In this document: positions 2,855-25,740 of the stretch, in pieces
Layout of the letters: each line of letters starts with the position of its first letter
Numbering within the stretch: the stretch's first letter is position 1
Assembly (NCBI GenBank): GCA_022820365.1
Contig: JAJEFO010000123.1
Location: 1 to 60,000 of the forward strand
From: Silicimonas sp.
GTDB lineage: Bacteria; Pseudomonadota; Alphaproteobacteria; Rhodobacterales; Rhodobacteraceae
Length of the DNA stretch: 60,000 nucleotides
Direction of reading: 5' to 3'
The notes under the pieces: model-generated
The model's input: the letters and a program-made list of their open reading frames with translations, nothing else
The model's database searches: none
What the model was told of the DNA's origin: nothing
Program-made: the position numbers and the translations under genes

Positions 2855-4348
2855 CTATTCGGAACCTTCCTCCGAAGCGCGCCACTCGTCTGGCGTCGGC
2901 GTGTGATTGAACACGTACGCGCGTTTGCAAGCCTCGACACCGCCGAGTTCCTCAATTCTGCGACTTTGGTCGGCGAAGCATCGGGCATTTACTTCTTCGG
3001 GATCGCAAATTGCCCTCAATCGCCTCTCGCCTTCCTTCCAGGCTGCCAGGACGTCGGGGTCGCGCATCCCGTCATGGGCCAGATTTCGCAGTTCATGGGG
3101 GTCTTGCGCCAGGTTGAATAGCTGGGCGTCGTGACCGACATAGTATACGAACTTCCAGTGCTCCCACCGCACCATGAAGGCTCCGGTCGTCGATCCGCCG
3201 TCATGGTACTCGCTGAACACGGTACGGTTCGGGTCGTCGTCCTCCGATGCGATCAAGCGAAGGGAACGGCCCGGGAAGGGGTCGTCCGTGTCATCCAAGA
3301 GATCCGCAACATCGACCACTGTCGCCGCCAGATCGATGAGGCTCGTCCCGGTGCCCACGCGCTTCCCCTCGGGCATGCCCGGGCCAGCGGCAATCATGGG
3401 GATGCCGGCCGATGCCTCATACATGACCTGTTTCGTCCAGAAGCCGTGATCGCCCATCATGTCGCCATGATCGGATGCGTAGACGACCGTCGTGTTGTCC
3501 GTCTGCCCAGACTGGTCCAGCGCAGAGAGGATTCGTCCCACGCAGTCGTCCACAAAGGACACGAGTCCATAGTATGCCGCCCTGGCCTCCCGCACCCTTC
3601 GTCGATCGAAGTGCCGGTCGTAATCGAAGAATCGGGCAATGTTCTTCAACTCGGCATGCCGGGGTCTCAGCGCATGCTCATATGCGATCGGAAAATCGAC
3701 GGACTCCGGGTCGTAGAGGTCGTAGAATTTCGAAGGCGCGACGAGAGGATAATGCGGGCTGACGAGGGACACGAACGTCACCCATGGAGTTTCCGACTCT
3801 CCGCACCCGAGCAGCCAGTCGCATGCGGCCTTTGTTATTGCTTGGTCGTAGTCCGTATAGGAACTCGCTCCCGCTCCAACATTTGCAGCAAGTTCCGGAG
3901 CGGCTCCGAAACTCGGCGGATCTTTGCGCAAGAGACCGACAGGCCAACCTACGCCGTCGACGACATGCATCGGCAGTATTTCCCGCGAGAAGCCGTTGTC
4001 GTCCTCGCTAGAACGGAAGTGCAGCTTGCCGATCGACGTGACCTCGATGCCGCCGTCGCGCAATTTGTGCATCCAGCTCCGCGGAACGCCGCGATAGGGG
4101 GTGGCACTGTCCCAGCAGCCGATATTGTGAACGTAATCGCCACAAGCCATGGCGGCGCGCGCAGGAACGCAGATCGGTGACGGAGTATATGCATTTTCGA
4201 AGATCGTCCCTCGGGCGGCGAGGCTGTCCAGATTCGGTGTCTTGACAATGGGGTGGCCGGTGCAGCCCAGCGCGTCCTTGCGGTGTTCGTCCGAGATGAT
4301 GATCAGGACGTTGTTGCGTGAGGCTGAGTTCATTTCTGGGGCGTCCAT
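2855..4348 (-). CDS. Type I sulfatase, choline-sulfatase-like
   Basis: 497 residues. The enzyme hydrolyses a sulfate ester. The N-terminus LIIISDEHRKDALG supplies the first metal ligands. The signature SPICVPAR (about residues 57-64) carries the Cys60 that a formylglycine-generating enzyme would convert. GKLHF and the later ASDHGDMMGDHGFW block give the remaining active-site and metal residues. The DE/DQ-type first motif and the HNIGCWDSA region resemble choline-O-sulfatase and related aryl/alkyl sulfatases. There is no signal peptide, so it should act in the cytoplasm. The start chosen is the ATG at 4348, just after AGG; an upstream TTG at 4384 is less likely. It is the first of four genes in this region that could act on sulfated compounds. 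The substrate is unknown, and no formylglycine-generating enzyme gene is in the window. Confidence 0.88.
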   Translation of the reverse strand: MDAPEMNSASRNNVLIIISDEHRKDALGCTGHPIVKTPNLDSLAARGTIFENAYTPSPICVPARAAMACGDYVHNIGCWDSATPYRGVPRSWMHKLRDGGIEVTSIGKLHFRSSEDDNGFSREILPMHVVDGVGWPVGLLRKDPPSFGAAPELAANVGAGASSYTDYDQAITKAACDWLLGCGESETPWVTFVSLVSPHYPLVAPSKFYDLYDPESVDFPIAYEHALRPRHAELKNIARFFDYDRHFDRRRVREARAAYYGLVSFVDDCVGRILSALDQSGQTDNTTVVYASDHGDMMGDHGFWTKQVMYEASAGIPMIAAGPGMPEGKRVGTGTSLIDLAATVVDVADLLDDTDDPFPGRSLRLIASEDDDPNRTVFSEYHDGGSTTGAFMVRWEHWKFVYYVGHDAQLFNLAQDPHELRNLAHDGMRDPDVLAAWKEGERRLRAICDPEEVNARCFADQSRRIEELGGVEACKRAYVFNHTPTPDEWRASEEGSE

Positions 4349-5039
4349 CGGATTGACCTGCCGGAGCAGCGCAGGGAATGGCAAATTACACGGTTTCTCG
4401 CGGCGTCACTGCTTCTTCCAATGAGCGAGGAGGTATTCGCGCTCGAGAGGAACCTGACCCAGGTCATGAGACGCGTACTGATCGTTCGCCGAAACGGCCA
4501 ATGATCTTGAAACGGCTCGCAGCCCGAATCGATTTCCTCTCGCGAGTCCATTCGAATTCGCCTCCTCTGGCTTCCTTCGGTTCGCGCGGAACCATTCTTC
4601 CCAAACGGGCGGGATTCATTCAACACGATCCAAGTGCCGGAAAAGTGCGAACAGCATTTGTTGGCGCGAATCTCTGGACAAGCAGCATCATTAAGGCTTG
4701 GATTCAGGTCAGACTCAAACCATGGGGATGGAATGCCATGGCGCTGTCGCTCAACTGGCGGTGGAGCTTCGAAACCGCAACAAGACATCAAGGCGTCACA
4801 GGCACTGCGGACAAGCCGAACATCTCACAGGCCGCCATCAGGCAACAATTCTGGCTCATCGAATGCCGTGCCGGAGCCAAATTGTTCAGCCGACTTCTCC
4901 AAGGGGTGTCGTTGACCGAGCCCAAGCGCTGCCTGTTCCTGAATGTCGCCGGTGAAATTGCGCTGCCGGAGCGGAGCTTTGCGGACGACCGGATGTGGCC
5001 GGCTTCGACAGTCGAGGCCATTTGCACCGCCGGATGCTC
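4349..5039. other. Intergenic stretch upstream of sulfatase and psuK
   Basis: About 690 bases that should contain the divergent promoters of the sulfatase (minus) and psuK (plus). Long frames exist on both strands (for example 4378-5043 plus), but they show no domain, no ribosome binding site and no typical codon pattern. I treat them as chance openings in GC-rich DNA. No clear promoter boxes or operator repeats were identified. Confidence 0.4.
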
Positions 5040-5933
5040 ATGACCGTAGCCACGAGGATTCCCTGCATCGGATCAGCGCATTGGGACGTGATTGGCAGTG
5101 CAGGCATTGTCATGACGGAAGGCTCTGATGTGCCGGGGCGCATTGCCTGGCATCCAGGTGGTGTCGCCTTGAACATTGCCACTTCGCTGGTGCGGTTCGG
5201 CATGACGCCGACGCTGCTAACTGCCATTGGGGAAGACGACGAAGGCGAAAGGCTCATCTCCTTTGCATCCGAAGTCGGAATTGACACGACATGCGTCTAC
5301 AGAACTGCAGAACTGCCAACAGACAGCTACATGGCCATCGAAGGAGCCAACGGCCTGATCGCAGCCATTGCTGACGCCCATTCGCTGGAAGCCGCAGGCG
5401 ACAGGATTCTCCGCCCGCTCTCAGATGGCCGTCTCGGATCGGCGGAGGCGCCATTTTCGGGGCCGGTCACGCTGGACGGAAACCTGACCGGTGCGCTCTT
5501 GGCCGAAATAGCGACAAGCCCGATATTCGAATGGGCCGACTTGCGCGTCGCGCCGGCCTCTCCCGGAAAGGCCGAGAGGCTCGCGCCACTGCTCGACATG
5601 CCGAACGCCACCGTTTACGTAAATGTCGAAGAGGCCGGGATCCTGTGCGGTTCGCGCTTCGACAACGCACGGGAGGCCGCGACAGCATTGCTGGAACTTG
5701 GCGCGAATCGAGCCCTGGTGACGAATGGTGAGCATGCGGTCGCAGATGGATCCCGCACCGGCATCATCCTGGCAGATCCGCCCACAGCAAATGTTGCTCG
5801 CGTCACTGGTGCAGGCGACACCTTTCTGGCAGCGCATGTTGCAGCCGAAATCGCCGGTGCTCAGCCCAAGGACGCTCTGGACAAGGCGCTCTGGGCAGCA
5901 GCGGACCACATATCGAGAGGAATCGCTTCATGA
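5040..5933 (+). CDS. psuK: PfkB-family sugar kinase, probable pseudouridine kinase
   Basis: 297 residues. A ribokinase-fold protein that, given its neighbour, should phosphorylate pseudouridine at the 5' position in the cytoplasm. Visible motifs are the N-terminal substrate region (GGVALNIATSLVRFG) and the C-terminal ATP and anion-hole signature VTGAGDTFLAAHV, with the catalytic Asp in GAGD. It overlaps psuG by four bases (ATGA), so the two are translationally coupled. The start is uncertain: ATG at 5040, ATG at 5034 and GTG at 4995 are in frame, and none has a strong ribosome binding site. A different nucleoside or sugar is possible, but the pairing with psuG favours pseudouridine. Confidence 0.8.
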   Translation: MTVATRIPCIGSAHWDVIGSAGIVMTEGSDVPGRIAWHPGGVALNIATSLVRFGMTPTLLTAIGEDDEGERLISFASEVGIDTTCVYRTAELPTDSYMAIEGANGLIAAIADAHSLEAAGDRILRPLSDGRLGSAEAPFSGPVTLDGNLTGALLAEIATSPIFEWADLRVAPASPGKAERLAPLLDMPNATVYVNVEEAGILCGSRFDNAREAATALLELGANRALVTNGEHAVADGSRTGIILADPPTANVARVTGAGDTFLAAHVAAEIAGAQPKDALDKALWAAADHISRGIAS

Positions 5934-24765: not shown

Positions 24766-24795
24766 CCGCAACGCTCCCGACCGTTCAGCCCATGT

Positions 24796-25740
24796 TCAAA
24801 GATCACCAAGTTGCTTCAACAACTCTTCGCTTGCAGCGAAGTCAGCTTGAACCCTTGCCTTTGCCTCCGCTGGATCCTGCCAATAGAGTTCCGCGCCGGT
24901 GGCCTGGCGCAGGTTCTCCACTTCATCCGAAGCGATGACCTCGCCCGCCACTGCAGAAATCTTGTCGATCACGTCCTGCGGCGTGCCCTTGGGGACAAAG
25001 ATCCCGCCCCAAAGCACGATTGGATCCCCTTCGACTTGTTCATGCAGGGTCATTGTCTCGGGAAGCGTCGGGATACGGTCATTCGTGTAAGACGCAATGG
25101 CCTTCGCGTCGCCACTGTCGAGACATGCCTTCACCTGAGCGGTTGTCGTGTTGATGACCTCCGCATCACCGTTGCTCAACGTTGTGCAGTCCAGACCTTC
25201 GAAGGAAGCATCGGAAGCGAACTTGAAGCCAAGTTCGTCGGCCATGGCGAATGTCACCTTGGTGGGAATCGCGCCATATCCAAAATGTCCGAGCGACACG
25301 TCGTTGGCCTTTGCATGCTCGGCCAGTTCCGCGAGATTATTGTATGGCACGCTCGCGGGTGCCGCCAGAATGAAGGGATATGTGACGAATATCCCGACGG
25401 CATCAAAGGCGTCGGCCGCATAAGTCGTGTTGCCCAGCTGGACCTGGCTGGTCAGAAGATCAATCACGAGATTGCCGATCATGTAGCCGTCAGGCTTCGA
25501 ATTGGCGACCTCGGTCGCGCCGATCACGCCGCCGCCGCCGGGCTTGTTGAGCGCCTTGACCGGAACATCGTAGGTCGCCTCCATCTTGTCGGCGATCATG
25601 CGGGCGATGGTGTCCTCGATATCGCCCGGCGGCCATGGGGTCAGGATCGTGACCGGCCGTTCGGGCCATTCGGCCTGTGCCATGTTGGCGGTTGCGAGCG
25701 CCACGAACACCGTGGCTGCAAGTGTGGAAATCAGTTTCAT
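24796..25740 (-). CDS. tctC: TTT transporter substrate-binding protein, copy 2
   Basis: 314 residues from the ATG at 25740 (GGGAGGA upstream; the frame opens 14 codons earlier without a good site). Signal peptide 1-23, cleaved after AQA before EWPERPV. The ligand loop TPWPPGDIEDTIARMI (34-49) is the same as in copy 1, again with acids in place of the usual PGG..D. Cys185 and Cys206 match the pair in copy 1 and could form a disulfide in the periplasm. It heads the second TTT operon. The shared unusual loop suggests that the two systems import related ligands. Confidence 0.92.
   Translation of the reverse strand: MKLISTLAATVFVALATANMAQAEWPERPVTILTPWPPGDIEDTIARMIADKMEATYDVPVKALNKPGGGGVIGATEVANSKPDGYMIGNLVIDLLTSQVQLGNTTYAADAFDAVGIFVTYPFILAAPASVPYNNLAELAEHAKANDVSLGHFGYGAIPTKVTFAMADELGFKFASDASFEGLDCTTLSNGDAEVINTTTAQVKACLDSGDAKAIASYTNDRIPTLPETMTLHEQVEGDPIVLWGGIFVPKGTPQDVIDKISAVAGEVIASDEVENLRQATGAELYWQDPAEAKARVQADFAASEELLKQLGDL

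What the first reader, a model, noticed from the sequence alone, without database searches (positions are those of the whole stretch)
2855..25740. Uncharacterised sulfate/amine/aromatic utilisation cluster with double TTT import
Seen: sulfatase, ASST-like sulfuryltransferase, PAPS sulfotransferase, MBL hydrolase, (R)-amine-type transaminase, aromatic-type FAD monooxygenase, E1 alpha/beta with a free lipoyl domain, aldehyde and alcohol dehydrogenases, a LysR regulator and two complete TTT transporters, all within 23 kb and largely in overlapping operons. Known: each family alone is common. Inferred: together they form a pathway that imports a sulfated and/or amine-bearing aromatic compound, handles its sulfate group, deaminates it, hydroxylates it and funnels the fragments into central metabolism. 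I know of no described pathway with this gene set.
Basis: partly seen in the sequence, partly recalled or inferred. Interest (0 to 1): 0.75.

Follow-up and report, generated by a model that had tools for sequence, protein, structure and literature searches.

The report
Conserved marine aryl-sulfate gene cluster
A set of about a dozen bacterial genes, kept together in several different groups of mostly marine bacteria, looks like an uptake-and-breakdown system for an unknown sulfated, nitrogen-bearing and perhaps aromatic compound, and could help show what a poorly understood class of sulfate-moving enzymes is for.

Summary
The genes are there, and most form a real conserved cluster. Core: LysR, aryl sulfotransferase (ASST), class-IV transaminase, metallo-beta-lactamase-fold (MBL) hydrolase, FAD hydroxylase, E1 alpha/beta, free lipoyl domain, ALDH, Fe-ADH and an importer. 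In 10 loci outside the genus the transaminase is kept in 10, MBL, E1 and lipoyl in 9, FAD hydroxylase, ALDH and Fe-ADH in 8, LysR in 7, with reshuffled order. MBL is best matched, by sequence and fold, to a Pseudoalteromonas arylsulfatase; ASST has the AssT fold and its three site histidines in 23 of 23 aligned relatives. The formylglycine sulfatase at 2855 and the pseudouridine genes are genus neighbours only; the PAPS sulfotransferase and second TTT are sporadic. Importers are exchanged (TTT in 5 of 10, TRAP-TAXI in 3 of 10). Mameliella sediminis carries P450, formylglycine sulfatase and full E2/E3 instead. Best reading: an uncharacterised import-and-degradation module for a sulfated, amine-bearing, perhaps aromatic compound. 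Substrate and step order are not shown.

The parts
6984..8102 (-). Iron-containing alcohol dehydrogenase (core)
   Evidence: PF00465 1.1e-39; nearest NCBIfam 4-hydroxybutyrate dehydrogenase, 417.7 bits, below its cutoff of 500; kept in 8 of 10 outside loci
8099..9547 (-). Aldehyde dehydrogenase (core)
   Evidence: PF00171 4.4e-140; 8 of 10
9560..11152 (-). FAD_binding_3 / Rng_hyd_C monooxygenase (core)
   Evidence: PF01494 3e-59, PF21274 6.4e-8; best solved relative RebC 2r0c; 8 of 10 linked, 9 of 10 somewhere in the genome
11149..11388 (-). Stand-alone lipoyl domain, 79 aa (core)
   Evidence: PF00364 2.9e-16; 9 of 10
11392..12372 (-). E1 beta subunit (core); ORF opens at 12456, start inferred at MPRMRF
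   Evidence: PF02779/PF02780; 9 of 10
12369..13367 (-). E1 alpha subunit (core); ORF opens at 13643, start inferred at MASSTSN
   Evidence: PF00676 4.3e-72; 9 of 10
13368..13490 (.). Divergent E1 alpha / LysR spacer with a block conserved in 7 of 7 genus genomes aligned; candidate operator (inference)
13491..14453 (+). LysR-family regulator (core); start inferred
   Evidence: PF00126 1.9e-22, PF03466 1e-24; 7 of 10
14515..16176 (+). Aryl sulfotransferase (ASST), no obvious signal peptide by eye (core); start inferred
   Evidence: PF05935 3.7e-64; AssT fold; H223, H313, H379 in 23 of 23 aligned rows, R331 in 19 of 23
16173..17159 (+). Class-IV (fold-type IV) transaminase, (R)-amine-transaminase-like; inferred ATG overlaps the ASST stop (core)
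   Evidence: PF01063 1.3e-43; best solved relative 6snl amine transaminase 1.1e-59; 10 of 10
17141..17590 (-).
   Evidence: PF00903 3.6e-13; H7, E67, H92, E139 invariant in 10 of 10 rows; 9 of 10 outside loci at 35% identity or more, the tenth 27%
17628..18491 (+). MBL-fold hydrolase, arylsulfatase-like (core)
   Evidence: HxHxDH, H153, D176, H247 invariant in 9 of 9 rows; best sequence and fold match 8gyg arylsulfatase; 9 of 10
18749..19681 (+). TctC1 substrate receptor with PPGDIED loop (importer)
   Evidence: PF03401 7.3e-25; loop type in 3 of 15 TctC of the genome; 5 of 10 outside loci
19688..20233 (+). TctB1
   Evidence: PF07331 3.1e-10
20233..21714 (+). TctA1
   Evidence: PF01970 3.2e-123; 5 of 10
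21767..22696 (+). PAPS-type sulfotransferase (accessory, sporadic)
   Evidence: PF00685 1.5e-42; in G000, G005, G006 but not G007, G001; 1 of 10 outside loci, L044
22693..24192 (-). TctA2 (second importer, sporadic)
   Evidence: PF01970 3.4e-127; 84% identical copy in the Mameliella cluster
24226..24771 (-). TctB2
   Evidence: PF07331 5.1e-10; 54% identical copy in the Mameliella cluster
24796..25740 (-). TctC2 with PPGDIED loop; ORF opens at 25782, start inferred
   Evidence: PF03401 6.6e-29; 74% and 65% identical copies in the Mameliella cluster
2855..4348 (-). Formylglycine-type sulfatase: genus neighbour, not part of the conserved core; start inferred
   Evidence: PF00884 1.3e-42; CxPxR read in the translation; 0 of 10 outside loci at 35% or more

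Best explanation
A catabolic gene cluster, probably LysR-controlled, for uptake and breakdown of a small organic anion that carries a sulfate ester and an amine, probably on an aromatic or phenolic skeleton. Shown: gene content, conservation, catalytic residues, predicted folds. Inferred steps: (1) the TTT importer (TRAP-TAXI in some relatives) brings the compound into the cytoplasm. (2) ASST takes the sulfuryl group onto its active-site histidine and passes it to an acceptor phenol. (3) The MBL-fold arylsulfatase-like enzyme frees the sulfate; a formylglycine sulfatase takes this place in Mameliella. (4) The transaminase turns the amine into a carbonyl. (5) The FAD hydroxylase (a P450 in Mameliella) oxygenates the skeleton, and the VOC enzyme isomerises or cleaves an intermediate. 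(6) Fe-ADH, E1 alpha/beta with the free lipoyl carrier, and ALDH cleave and oxidise the resulting hydroxy-ketone or 2-oxo acid, in the manner of acetoin catabolism, to acids for central metabolism. The order of steps 2-5 and the substrate are not known.
For: Gene set kept with ASST outside the genus: transaminase 10 of 10; VOC, MBL, E1a, E1b and lipoyl 9 of 10 each; FAD hydroxylase, ALDH and FeADH 8 of 10 each; LysR 7 of 10, although gene order differs among L036, L040, L042/L044 and the window. ASST fold and site residues. MBL closest to an arylsulfatase by sequence and fold, HxHxDH invariant. Replacement of sulfatase type, oxygenase, lipoyl carrier and importer in Mameliella while ASST, transaminase, E1, ALDH and FeADH stay. 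Sulfatase-family genes within 8 kb of the more distant ASSTs L055, L056, L062, L063. Ring-cleavage-type genes near ASST in L054 (LigB, FAA hydrolase) and L063 (cupin, FAA hydrolase, GST). Weak hint on location: the ASSTs of L052, L055, L056 and L063, loci with a TonB receptor (L055 by Pfam; the others by similarity cluster), have the N-terminal hydrophobic peaks 2.8, 3.06, 2.66 and 2.19 in the crude scan.
Against: No activity or expression data. No ring-cleavage dioxygenase was recognised in the core cluster itself, so the aromatic part is weak. The E1 module is dispensable: E1a/E1b truncated in G004, none beside ASST in L041/L143. E1-lipoyl also occurs without a linked ASST. G005's ASST lies in two frames and G001's MBL has an in-frame stop. 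Six more distant ASST loci of the class (31-41%) have none of the partner genes apart from one weak LysR hit. The location hint is not clean: L032, L042 and L064, not TonB loci, score 2.3, 1.94 and 1.81 (partly upstream of likely starts), and L060/L061 only 1.45 and 1.37. A sulfotransferase beside a sulfatase is also compatible with sulfation rather than desulfation. The MBL family also resembles RNase Z, PNGM-1 and phosphodiesterases.
Confidence: 0.5

Rival explanations
1. Sulfate relay, not sulfate removal. As recalled for caprazamycin biosynthesis, a PAPS sulfotransferase loads a phenolic carrier and ASST passes the sulfate to the real target. The sulfated product is then exported, protected from oxidation, or processed further, and the MBL sulfatase recycles the carrier.
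For: A PAPS sulfotransferase lies in the cluster in G000, G005, G006 and L044. The next fold match after AssT is Cpz4, the caprazamycin ASST. Its role in antibiotic biosynthesis is stated in PMC13426309 (passages).
Against: The PAPS sulfotransferase was not found in 9 of 10 outside loci (some of these contigs end early) nor in G007 and G001. The importers, transaminase, dehydrogenases and LysR look catabolic. No polyketide synthase was seen among the window genes scanned (not every ORF of the window).
Confidence: 0.17
2. The ASST-like and MBL proteins have changed function. The cluster degrades an unsulfated amino-bearing compound through a transaminase / acetoin-dehydrogenase-like route, and the propeller and MBL proteins act as another transferase, lyase, lactonase or phosphodiesterase.
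For: Transaminase, E1 alpha/beta, lipoyl and a weak VOC occur together with a cyclase-like gene but no linked ASST in G428. The MBL resembles the RNase Z/phosphodiesterase clade. Identity to AssT is only about 18%.
Against: All three sulfuryl-site histidines are kept in 23 of 23 rows. The MBL's best match is an arylsulfatase by 48 bits over RNase Z. Sulfatase-family genes recur near these ASSTs.
Confidence: 0.22
3. Two separate systems that sit side by side: an importer-ASST-sulfatase unit and an E1-lipoyl-ALDH-FeADH unit under one regulator, with no common substrate.
For: Each half occurs alone: a TctA gene beside ASST without the dehydrogenases in L047, L051, L053, L057, L058, L064 (Pfam check for L053 only); E1-lipoyl without ASST in f65, f131 and the window's own contig C3.
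Against: 9 of 10 outside loci keep E1 with ASST despite rearranged order (L043 through a contig inferred to adjoin), and E1 genes recur near distant ASSTs L059-L061 and L063.
Confidence: 0.08
4. Chance neighbourhood or simple synteny of the genus.
For: Every family alone is common.
Against: Conservation across records labelled Mameliella, Cognatishimia, Rhodospirillaceae, SAR116 and others with different gene orders; transaminase orthologue 10 of 10.
Confidence: 0.03

Closest known systems
Bacterial arylsulfate sulfotransferase AssT/ASST (E. coli CFT073; PF05935; PDB 3elq/3ets)
   Same: Same fold: first nine PDB matches of the model. The sulfuryl-site His, His, Asn, Arg and nucleophilic His align (residue roles from passages of PMC13426309).
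   Different: About 18% identity; Arg replaced by Lys in 4 of 23 relatives; no obvious signal peptide here, whereas EcAST is periplasmic with DsbL/DsbI in its operon. Here it sits in a catabolic-looking cluster with an importer and a transaminase.
MBL-fold arylsulfohydrolases, sulfatase family S4 (AtsA of Pseudoalteromonas carrageenovora; 8gyg from P. atlantica)
   Same: HxHxDH; best sequence and fold match over nearly the whole length; AtsA lies near the RNase Z clade according to PMC5066984 (passages).
   Different: 28% identity to 8gyg; AtsA itself was not compared; activity unknown.
Acetoin dehydrogenase (AcoABC) type E1/lipoyl systems (recalled)
   Same: E1 alpha/beta with a lipoyl protein, ALDH and an alcohol dehydrogenase in one operon.
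   Different: Only a free 79-aa lipoyl domain; no E2 acyltransferase or E3 among the cluster genes. Mameliella has full E2 and E3.
(R)-selective amine transaminases, fold type IV
   Same: Best solved relatives 6snl, 6xu3, 8zm7, 4cmd.
   Different: Substrate unknown; all 18 NCBIfam models matched score below their cutoffs.
Caprazamycin two-step sulfation (PAPS sulfotransferase plus Cpz4; pairing recalled)
   Same: An ASST and a PAPS sulfotransferase in one cluster; Cpz4 is the next fold match.
   Different: The PAPS enzyme is not conserved here, and the rest of the cluster looks catabolic.

Membership tests
Aryl sulfotransferase (ASST, PF05935) | Pfam family and AssT fold | tested here: met
   217.5 bits against cutoff 24.2; model pLDDT 90.9, top nine PDB matches AssT
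Aryl sulfotransferase (ASST, PF05935) | Active-site residues of EcAST His252, His356, Asn358, Arg374, His436 | tested here: met
   Aligned in the window protein (His252 only in a weak segment); the three His in 23 of 23, Arg in 19 of 23; Thr501 not checked
Aryl sulfotransferase (ASST, PF05935) | Sulfuryl transfer between phenols | not testable with these tools
   needs enzyme assay
MBL-fold arylsulfohydrolase (family S4) | HxHxDH signature | tested here: met
   9 of 9 rows
MBL-fold arylsulfohydrolase (family S4) | At least 30% identity to AtsA (the criterion of PMC5066984, passage) | tested here: inconclusive
   28% to the P. atlantica enzyme 8gyg; AtsA itself was not compared
MBL-fold arylsulfohydrolase (family S4) | Aryl sulfate hydrolysis | not testable with these tools
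   needs enzyme assay
Fold-type IV (R)-amine transaminase | PF01063 and nearest characterised relatives amine transaminases | tested here: met
Fold-type IV (R)-amine transaminase | Activity on (R)-amines | not testable with these tools
   needs enzyme assay
Acetoin dehydrogenase complex | E1 alpha and beta subunits | tested here: met
   (E1 families; no model specific to acetoin dehydrogenase was matched)
Acetoin dehydrogenase complex | E2 component with catalytic domain in the operon | tested here: not met
   only a free lipoyl domain in the window cluster
Caprazamycin-type two-step sulfate relay | PAPS sulfotransferase regularly paired with ASST | tested here: not met
   1 of 10 outside loci; 3 of 5 genus genomes whose contig reaches the site
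Tripartite tricarboxylate transporter (TTT) | TctA, TctB and TctC together | tested here: met
   both sets

The most novel reading that the evidence does not exclude
A dedicated catabolic pathway for sulfated aromatic amines (or sulfated amino acids) in marine bacteria, in which a cytoplasmic, PAPS-independent aryl sulfotransferase carries out the first desulfation by transfer and an MBL-fold arylsulfatase finishes it. This would be a clear catabolic role for ASSTs, whose physiological role a 2026 review calls poorly understood, and a use of TctC receptors with an acidic PPGDIED loop to bind an amine-bearing ligand.
Probability: 0.35. Interest if true: 0.72.

Novelty: new variant of a known kind. 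Interest (0 to 1): 0.5.

Why it matters
A 2026 review of bacterial PAPS-independent aryl sulfotransferases says that their physiological role remains poorly understood, as natural substrates have not yet been identified (PMC13426309, passages). A conserved cluster that ties one ASST clade to an importer, an arylsulfatase-like enzyme and a set of catabolic enzymes makes that question testable, because Mameliella sediminis DP3N28-2, whose record title gives a strain name, carries a version. If the reading is right, it may also reveal an unrecognised route by which plankton and, judging by isolate names, sponge-associated bacteria turn over sulfated organic matter.

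Tried and rejected
Formylglycine sulfatase (2855) and PsuK/PsuG as pathway members: dropped, no hit at 35% or more in 10 outside loci. Second TTT as mere noise: kept as accessory, because a related set (TctA 84%, TctC 74% and 65%, TctB 54%) lies in the Mameliella cluster. ORF 13644-14549 (-) as a gene: no Pfam or NCBIfam match; the LysR gene on the other strand is real. Plasmid origin: 30 plasmid records match ASST, at 23.5-30.4% identity, and none covers 80% of it. 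VOC as a ring-cleaving extradiol dioxygenase: not supported, since four metal-ligand positions (H, E, H, E) are invariant, which I recall as the glyoxalase/epimerase pattern; a weak match to L-DOPA dioxygenase 6on1 (E 0.0094) was seen. More distant ASSTs of the class: 6 of 6 loci looked at have none of the partner genes apart from one weak LysR hit, so the linkage belongs to this ASST clade. Phylogenetic profile ASST against transaminase (3 of 3 class genomes with a transaminase at 58% or more also have an ASST, Fisher 9e-6): not used, because two of the three are one genus and its ASST is a distant type elsewhere in the genome. Paper searches for ASST with TTT, sponge symbionts, Rhodobacteraceae, transaminase gene clusters, or aryl-sulfate catabolism in marine bacteria (PMC open-licence papers only, search listings): five gave no paper, one paper on mood and indoxyl sulfate, and nineteen papers, of which the fifteen listed do not hold the term 'aryl sulfate'. 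So no description of this cluster was found in that library, which lacks most subscription journals. PMC11576661 was seen in passages only and is not used.

Limits: L037 and L039 are near-identical (VOC rows differ in one unknown residue), so the 10 outside loci are about 9 independent ones. Several contigs end early (for example L036, L037, L041, L043), so missing genes may be unseen ones and counts are lower bounds. A gene counts as present at 35% identity or more over at least 35% of its length. The labels of L039 (Micrococcales) and L043 (Acidobacteria) are MAG labels and may be wrong. The genome-contig scan used two peptide patterns only, so the 36 loci are a lower bound. Counts add contigs L125, L141 and L143 to L043, L046 and L041; L141 is the same contig as L046, and that L125 and L143 adjoin L043 and L041 is inferred from contig ends. 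L042's TAXI genes were the query and match themselves. N-terminal hydrophobicity is a crude scan that reads upstream of true starts, not a signal-peptide predictor. One of 15 TctC loops (L127) was not resolved. Sponge origin of many MAGs is inferred from isolate names and recall. Start codons in the parts list are inferred.

Full report
WHAT IS THERE. The window is the first 60 kb of a 238-kb contig in a 4.7-Mb, 135-contig genome. Two units diverge around the E1 alpha/LysR spacer: (-) FeADH, ALDH, FAD monooxygenase, free lipoyl domain, E1 beta, E1 alpha; (+) LysR, ASST, class-IV transaminase, then MBL and TctC-B-A. The FeADH/ALDH and FAD monooxygenase/lipoyl ORFs overlap by 4 bases, and so do ASST and transaminase if the inferred start is right. 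Then come a PAPS-type sulfotransferase and a second TTT on the (-) strand. Further out are housekeeping genes such as a tRNA m1G methyltransferase, an S41 peptidase and a phosphoglycerate mutase.

IS IT A UNIT? In the genus (8 genomes including this one) ASST is present in 8 of 8; in the other 113 genomes of the relatives set in 0 of 113 at E <= 0.001. On the longer contigs the core order is the same in G007, G002, G001, G004 (E1 genes truncated, contig ends after MBL) and G005. That alone could be synteny. In ten outside loci with ASST at 55-79% identity (L036-L044, L046), tblastn found the other core genes around it: transaminase 10 of 10; VOC, MBL, E1a, E1b and lipoyl 9 of 10 each; FAD hydroxylase, ALDH and FeADH 8 of 10 each; LysR 7 of 10. 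The order is not the same: in L042 and L044 the FAD hydroxylase is on the ASST strand and E1 lies beyond FeADH-ALDH; in L036 the hydroxylase follows MBL; in L040 FeADH-ALDH lie downstream and the hydroxylase elsewhere. Whole-genome searches show that the transaminase copy in the cluster is the orthologue (56-78%, next best found at most 37%; 10 of 10 genomes, 9 of 10 on the ASST contig, the tenth at the start of another contig, while L041 ends inside ASST). A tree of 23 ASSTs puts the window and eight outside core rows in one clade, 100/100, with a second ASST copy of the genus nested inside (L039 and L041 were not in the tree); that copy lies beside a TRAP-TAXI transporter.

WHAT IS EXCHANGED. 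TTT1 is present in 5 of 10 outside loci, TRAP-TAXI in 3 of 10. The strongest case is Mameliella sediminis DP3N28-2 (L046, L141): ASST followed directly by a formylglycine sulfatase, TRAP-TAXI, GntR regulator, VOC (27%), complete E2, E1a, E1b, ALDH, transaminase (56%), a second ALDH, FeADH (43%), a P450, E3, and a TTT whose TctA is 84%, TctCs 74% and 65%, and TctB 54% identical to the window's second TTT. So sulfatase type, oxygenase type, lipoyl carrier and importer are replaced by different proteins that could do the same step. This argues for one pathway with the roles desulfation, oxygenation, transamination, lipoyl-dependent cleavage and organic-anion import. Its MBL and FAD_binding_3 hydroxylase are missing or very distant (no MBL hit; 24%).

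SULFATE CHEMISTRY. The ASST model (pLDDT 90.9) matches AssT structures in its first nine PDB hits, then Cpz4. The alignment to AssT pairs window His223, His313, Asn315, Arg331 and His379 (numbered from 14515) with His252, His356, Asn358, Arg374 and His436, residues named in PMC13426309 (passages read); the His252 pairing rests on a weak segment. The three His are kept in 23 of 23 rows, Arg in 19 of 23, Lys in 4 (L063 dropped). The MBL protein has HxHxDH (9 of 9 rows). Its best PDB match is the Pseudoalteromonas atlantica arylsulfatase 8gyg by sequence (7.5e-28, against 3.9e-13 for RNase Z) and by fold (TM 0.82-0.84, against up to 0.79 for the lactamase PNGM-1 and up to 0.75 for RNase Z; model pLDDT 83.0). 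PMC5066984 (passages) describes S4 arylsulfohydrolases as a small clade near RNase Z. Sulfatase-family genes also lie near the more distant ASSTs of L055, L056, L062 and L063.

AROMATIC? Hints only: an FAD_binding_3/Rng_hyd_C hydroxylase; LigB and FAA-hydrolase genes near ASST in L054; a cupin protein whose start I recall as gentisate-dioxygenase-like, with FAA hydrolase and GST, in L063. No ring-cleavage gene was recognised in the core cluster itself.

AMINE? The transaminase, and perhaps the TctC loop: both window TctCs and one other of 15 in the genome read PPGD(I/L)ED where ten read GG, one reads otherwise and one was not resolved (the 15th, L137, is among the ten). The DIED loop is kept in TctC1 of L016, L038, L039 and L044; L036 is cut off at ED. 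An acidic loop would suit a cationic group on the ligand; this is inference.

WHERE DOES ASST ACT? A weak hint. The window ASST starts without an obvious signal peptide. The ASSTs of L052, L055, L056 and L063, in loci with a TonB receptor (Pfam for L055; similarity cluster for the rest), show hydrophobic N-terminal peaks of 2.19-3.06, and L055 and L062 a lipobox-like motif. But some TTT/TRAP-type rows also score 1.8-2.3, partly from sequence upstream of the likely start. If the pattern holds, ASST location follows the importer, as expected if it acts on the imported compound (inference).

AGAINST. E1 genes are truncated in G004 and missing beside ASST in L041/L143; G005's ASST is in two frames; G001's MBL has an in-frame stop; these may be decay or assembly errors. 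E1-lipoyl modules without a linked ASST occur in f65, f131 and on contig C3 of this genome. Six more distant ASST loci of the class have none of the partners apart from a weak LysR hit. The PAPS sulfotransferase is in 1 of 10 outside loci.

VERDICT. The boundaries are narrower at the left (6984, not 2855) and soft at the right (the importer-sulfotransferase end varies). Each enzyme belongs to a known family; the combination is an uncharacterised, probably catabolic module, with no description found in the library searched. The substrate is unknown.

Noticed in passing
   Followed up: yes
G000:C3:34252-35220 (L122): The same genome has a second E1 alpha/beta plus free lipoyl module (54-55% identical) near another TTT and a sulfatase-like gene, without ASST.
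   Followed up: partly
L095/L096 (G428): A smaller cluster with transaminase (57%), a gene resembling cyclase/kynurenine formamidase (recalled from its start), E1 alpha/beta, lipoyl and a weak VOC, without linked ASST.
   Followed up: partly
L027/L035: A second ASST copy of the genus (74% identical) lies beside a TRAP-TAXI transporter and lacks the other core genes.
   Followed up: partly
L047, L051, L053, L057, L058, L064: In Rhodospirillaceae-like MAGs ASST sits next to a different TctA (31-33% identical) without the dehydrogenases: an importer-ASST pair.
   Followed up: partly
window 18749-19681, 24796-25740; G000:C28: TctC receptors with an acidic PPGD(I/L)ED loop, 3 of 15 in this genome.
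   Followed up: partly
window 13368-13490: Block in the E1 alpha/LysR spacer nearly identical in 7 of 7 genus genomes aligned; possible LysR operator.
   Followed up: no
L062:11671-13572: A second, divergent PF05935 protein is encoded convergently beside the ASST in a Halieaceae MAG.
   Followed up: no
window 26562-27515 (-): Protein with a weak TbpB_B_D beta-barrel match; 70-78% identical in two genus members, one partial, while its neighbours reach 84-96% or more.
   Followed up: no
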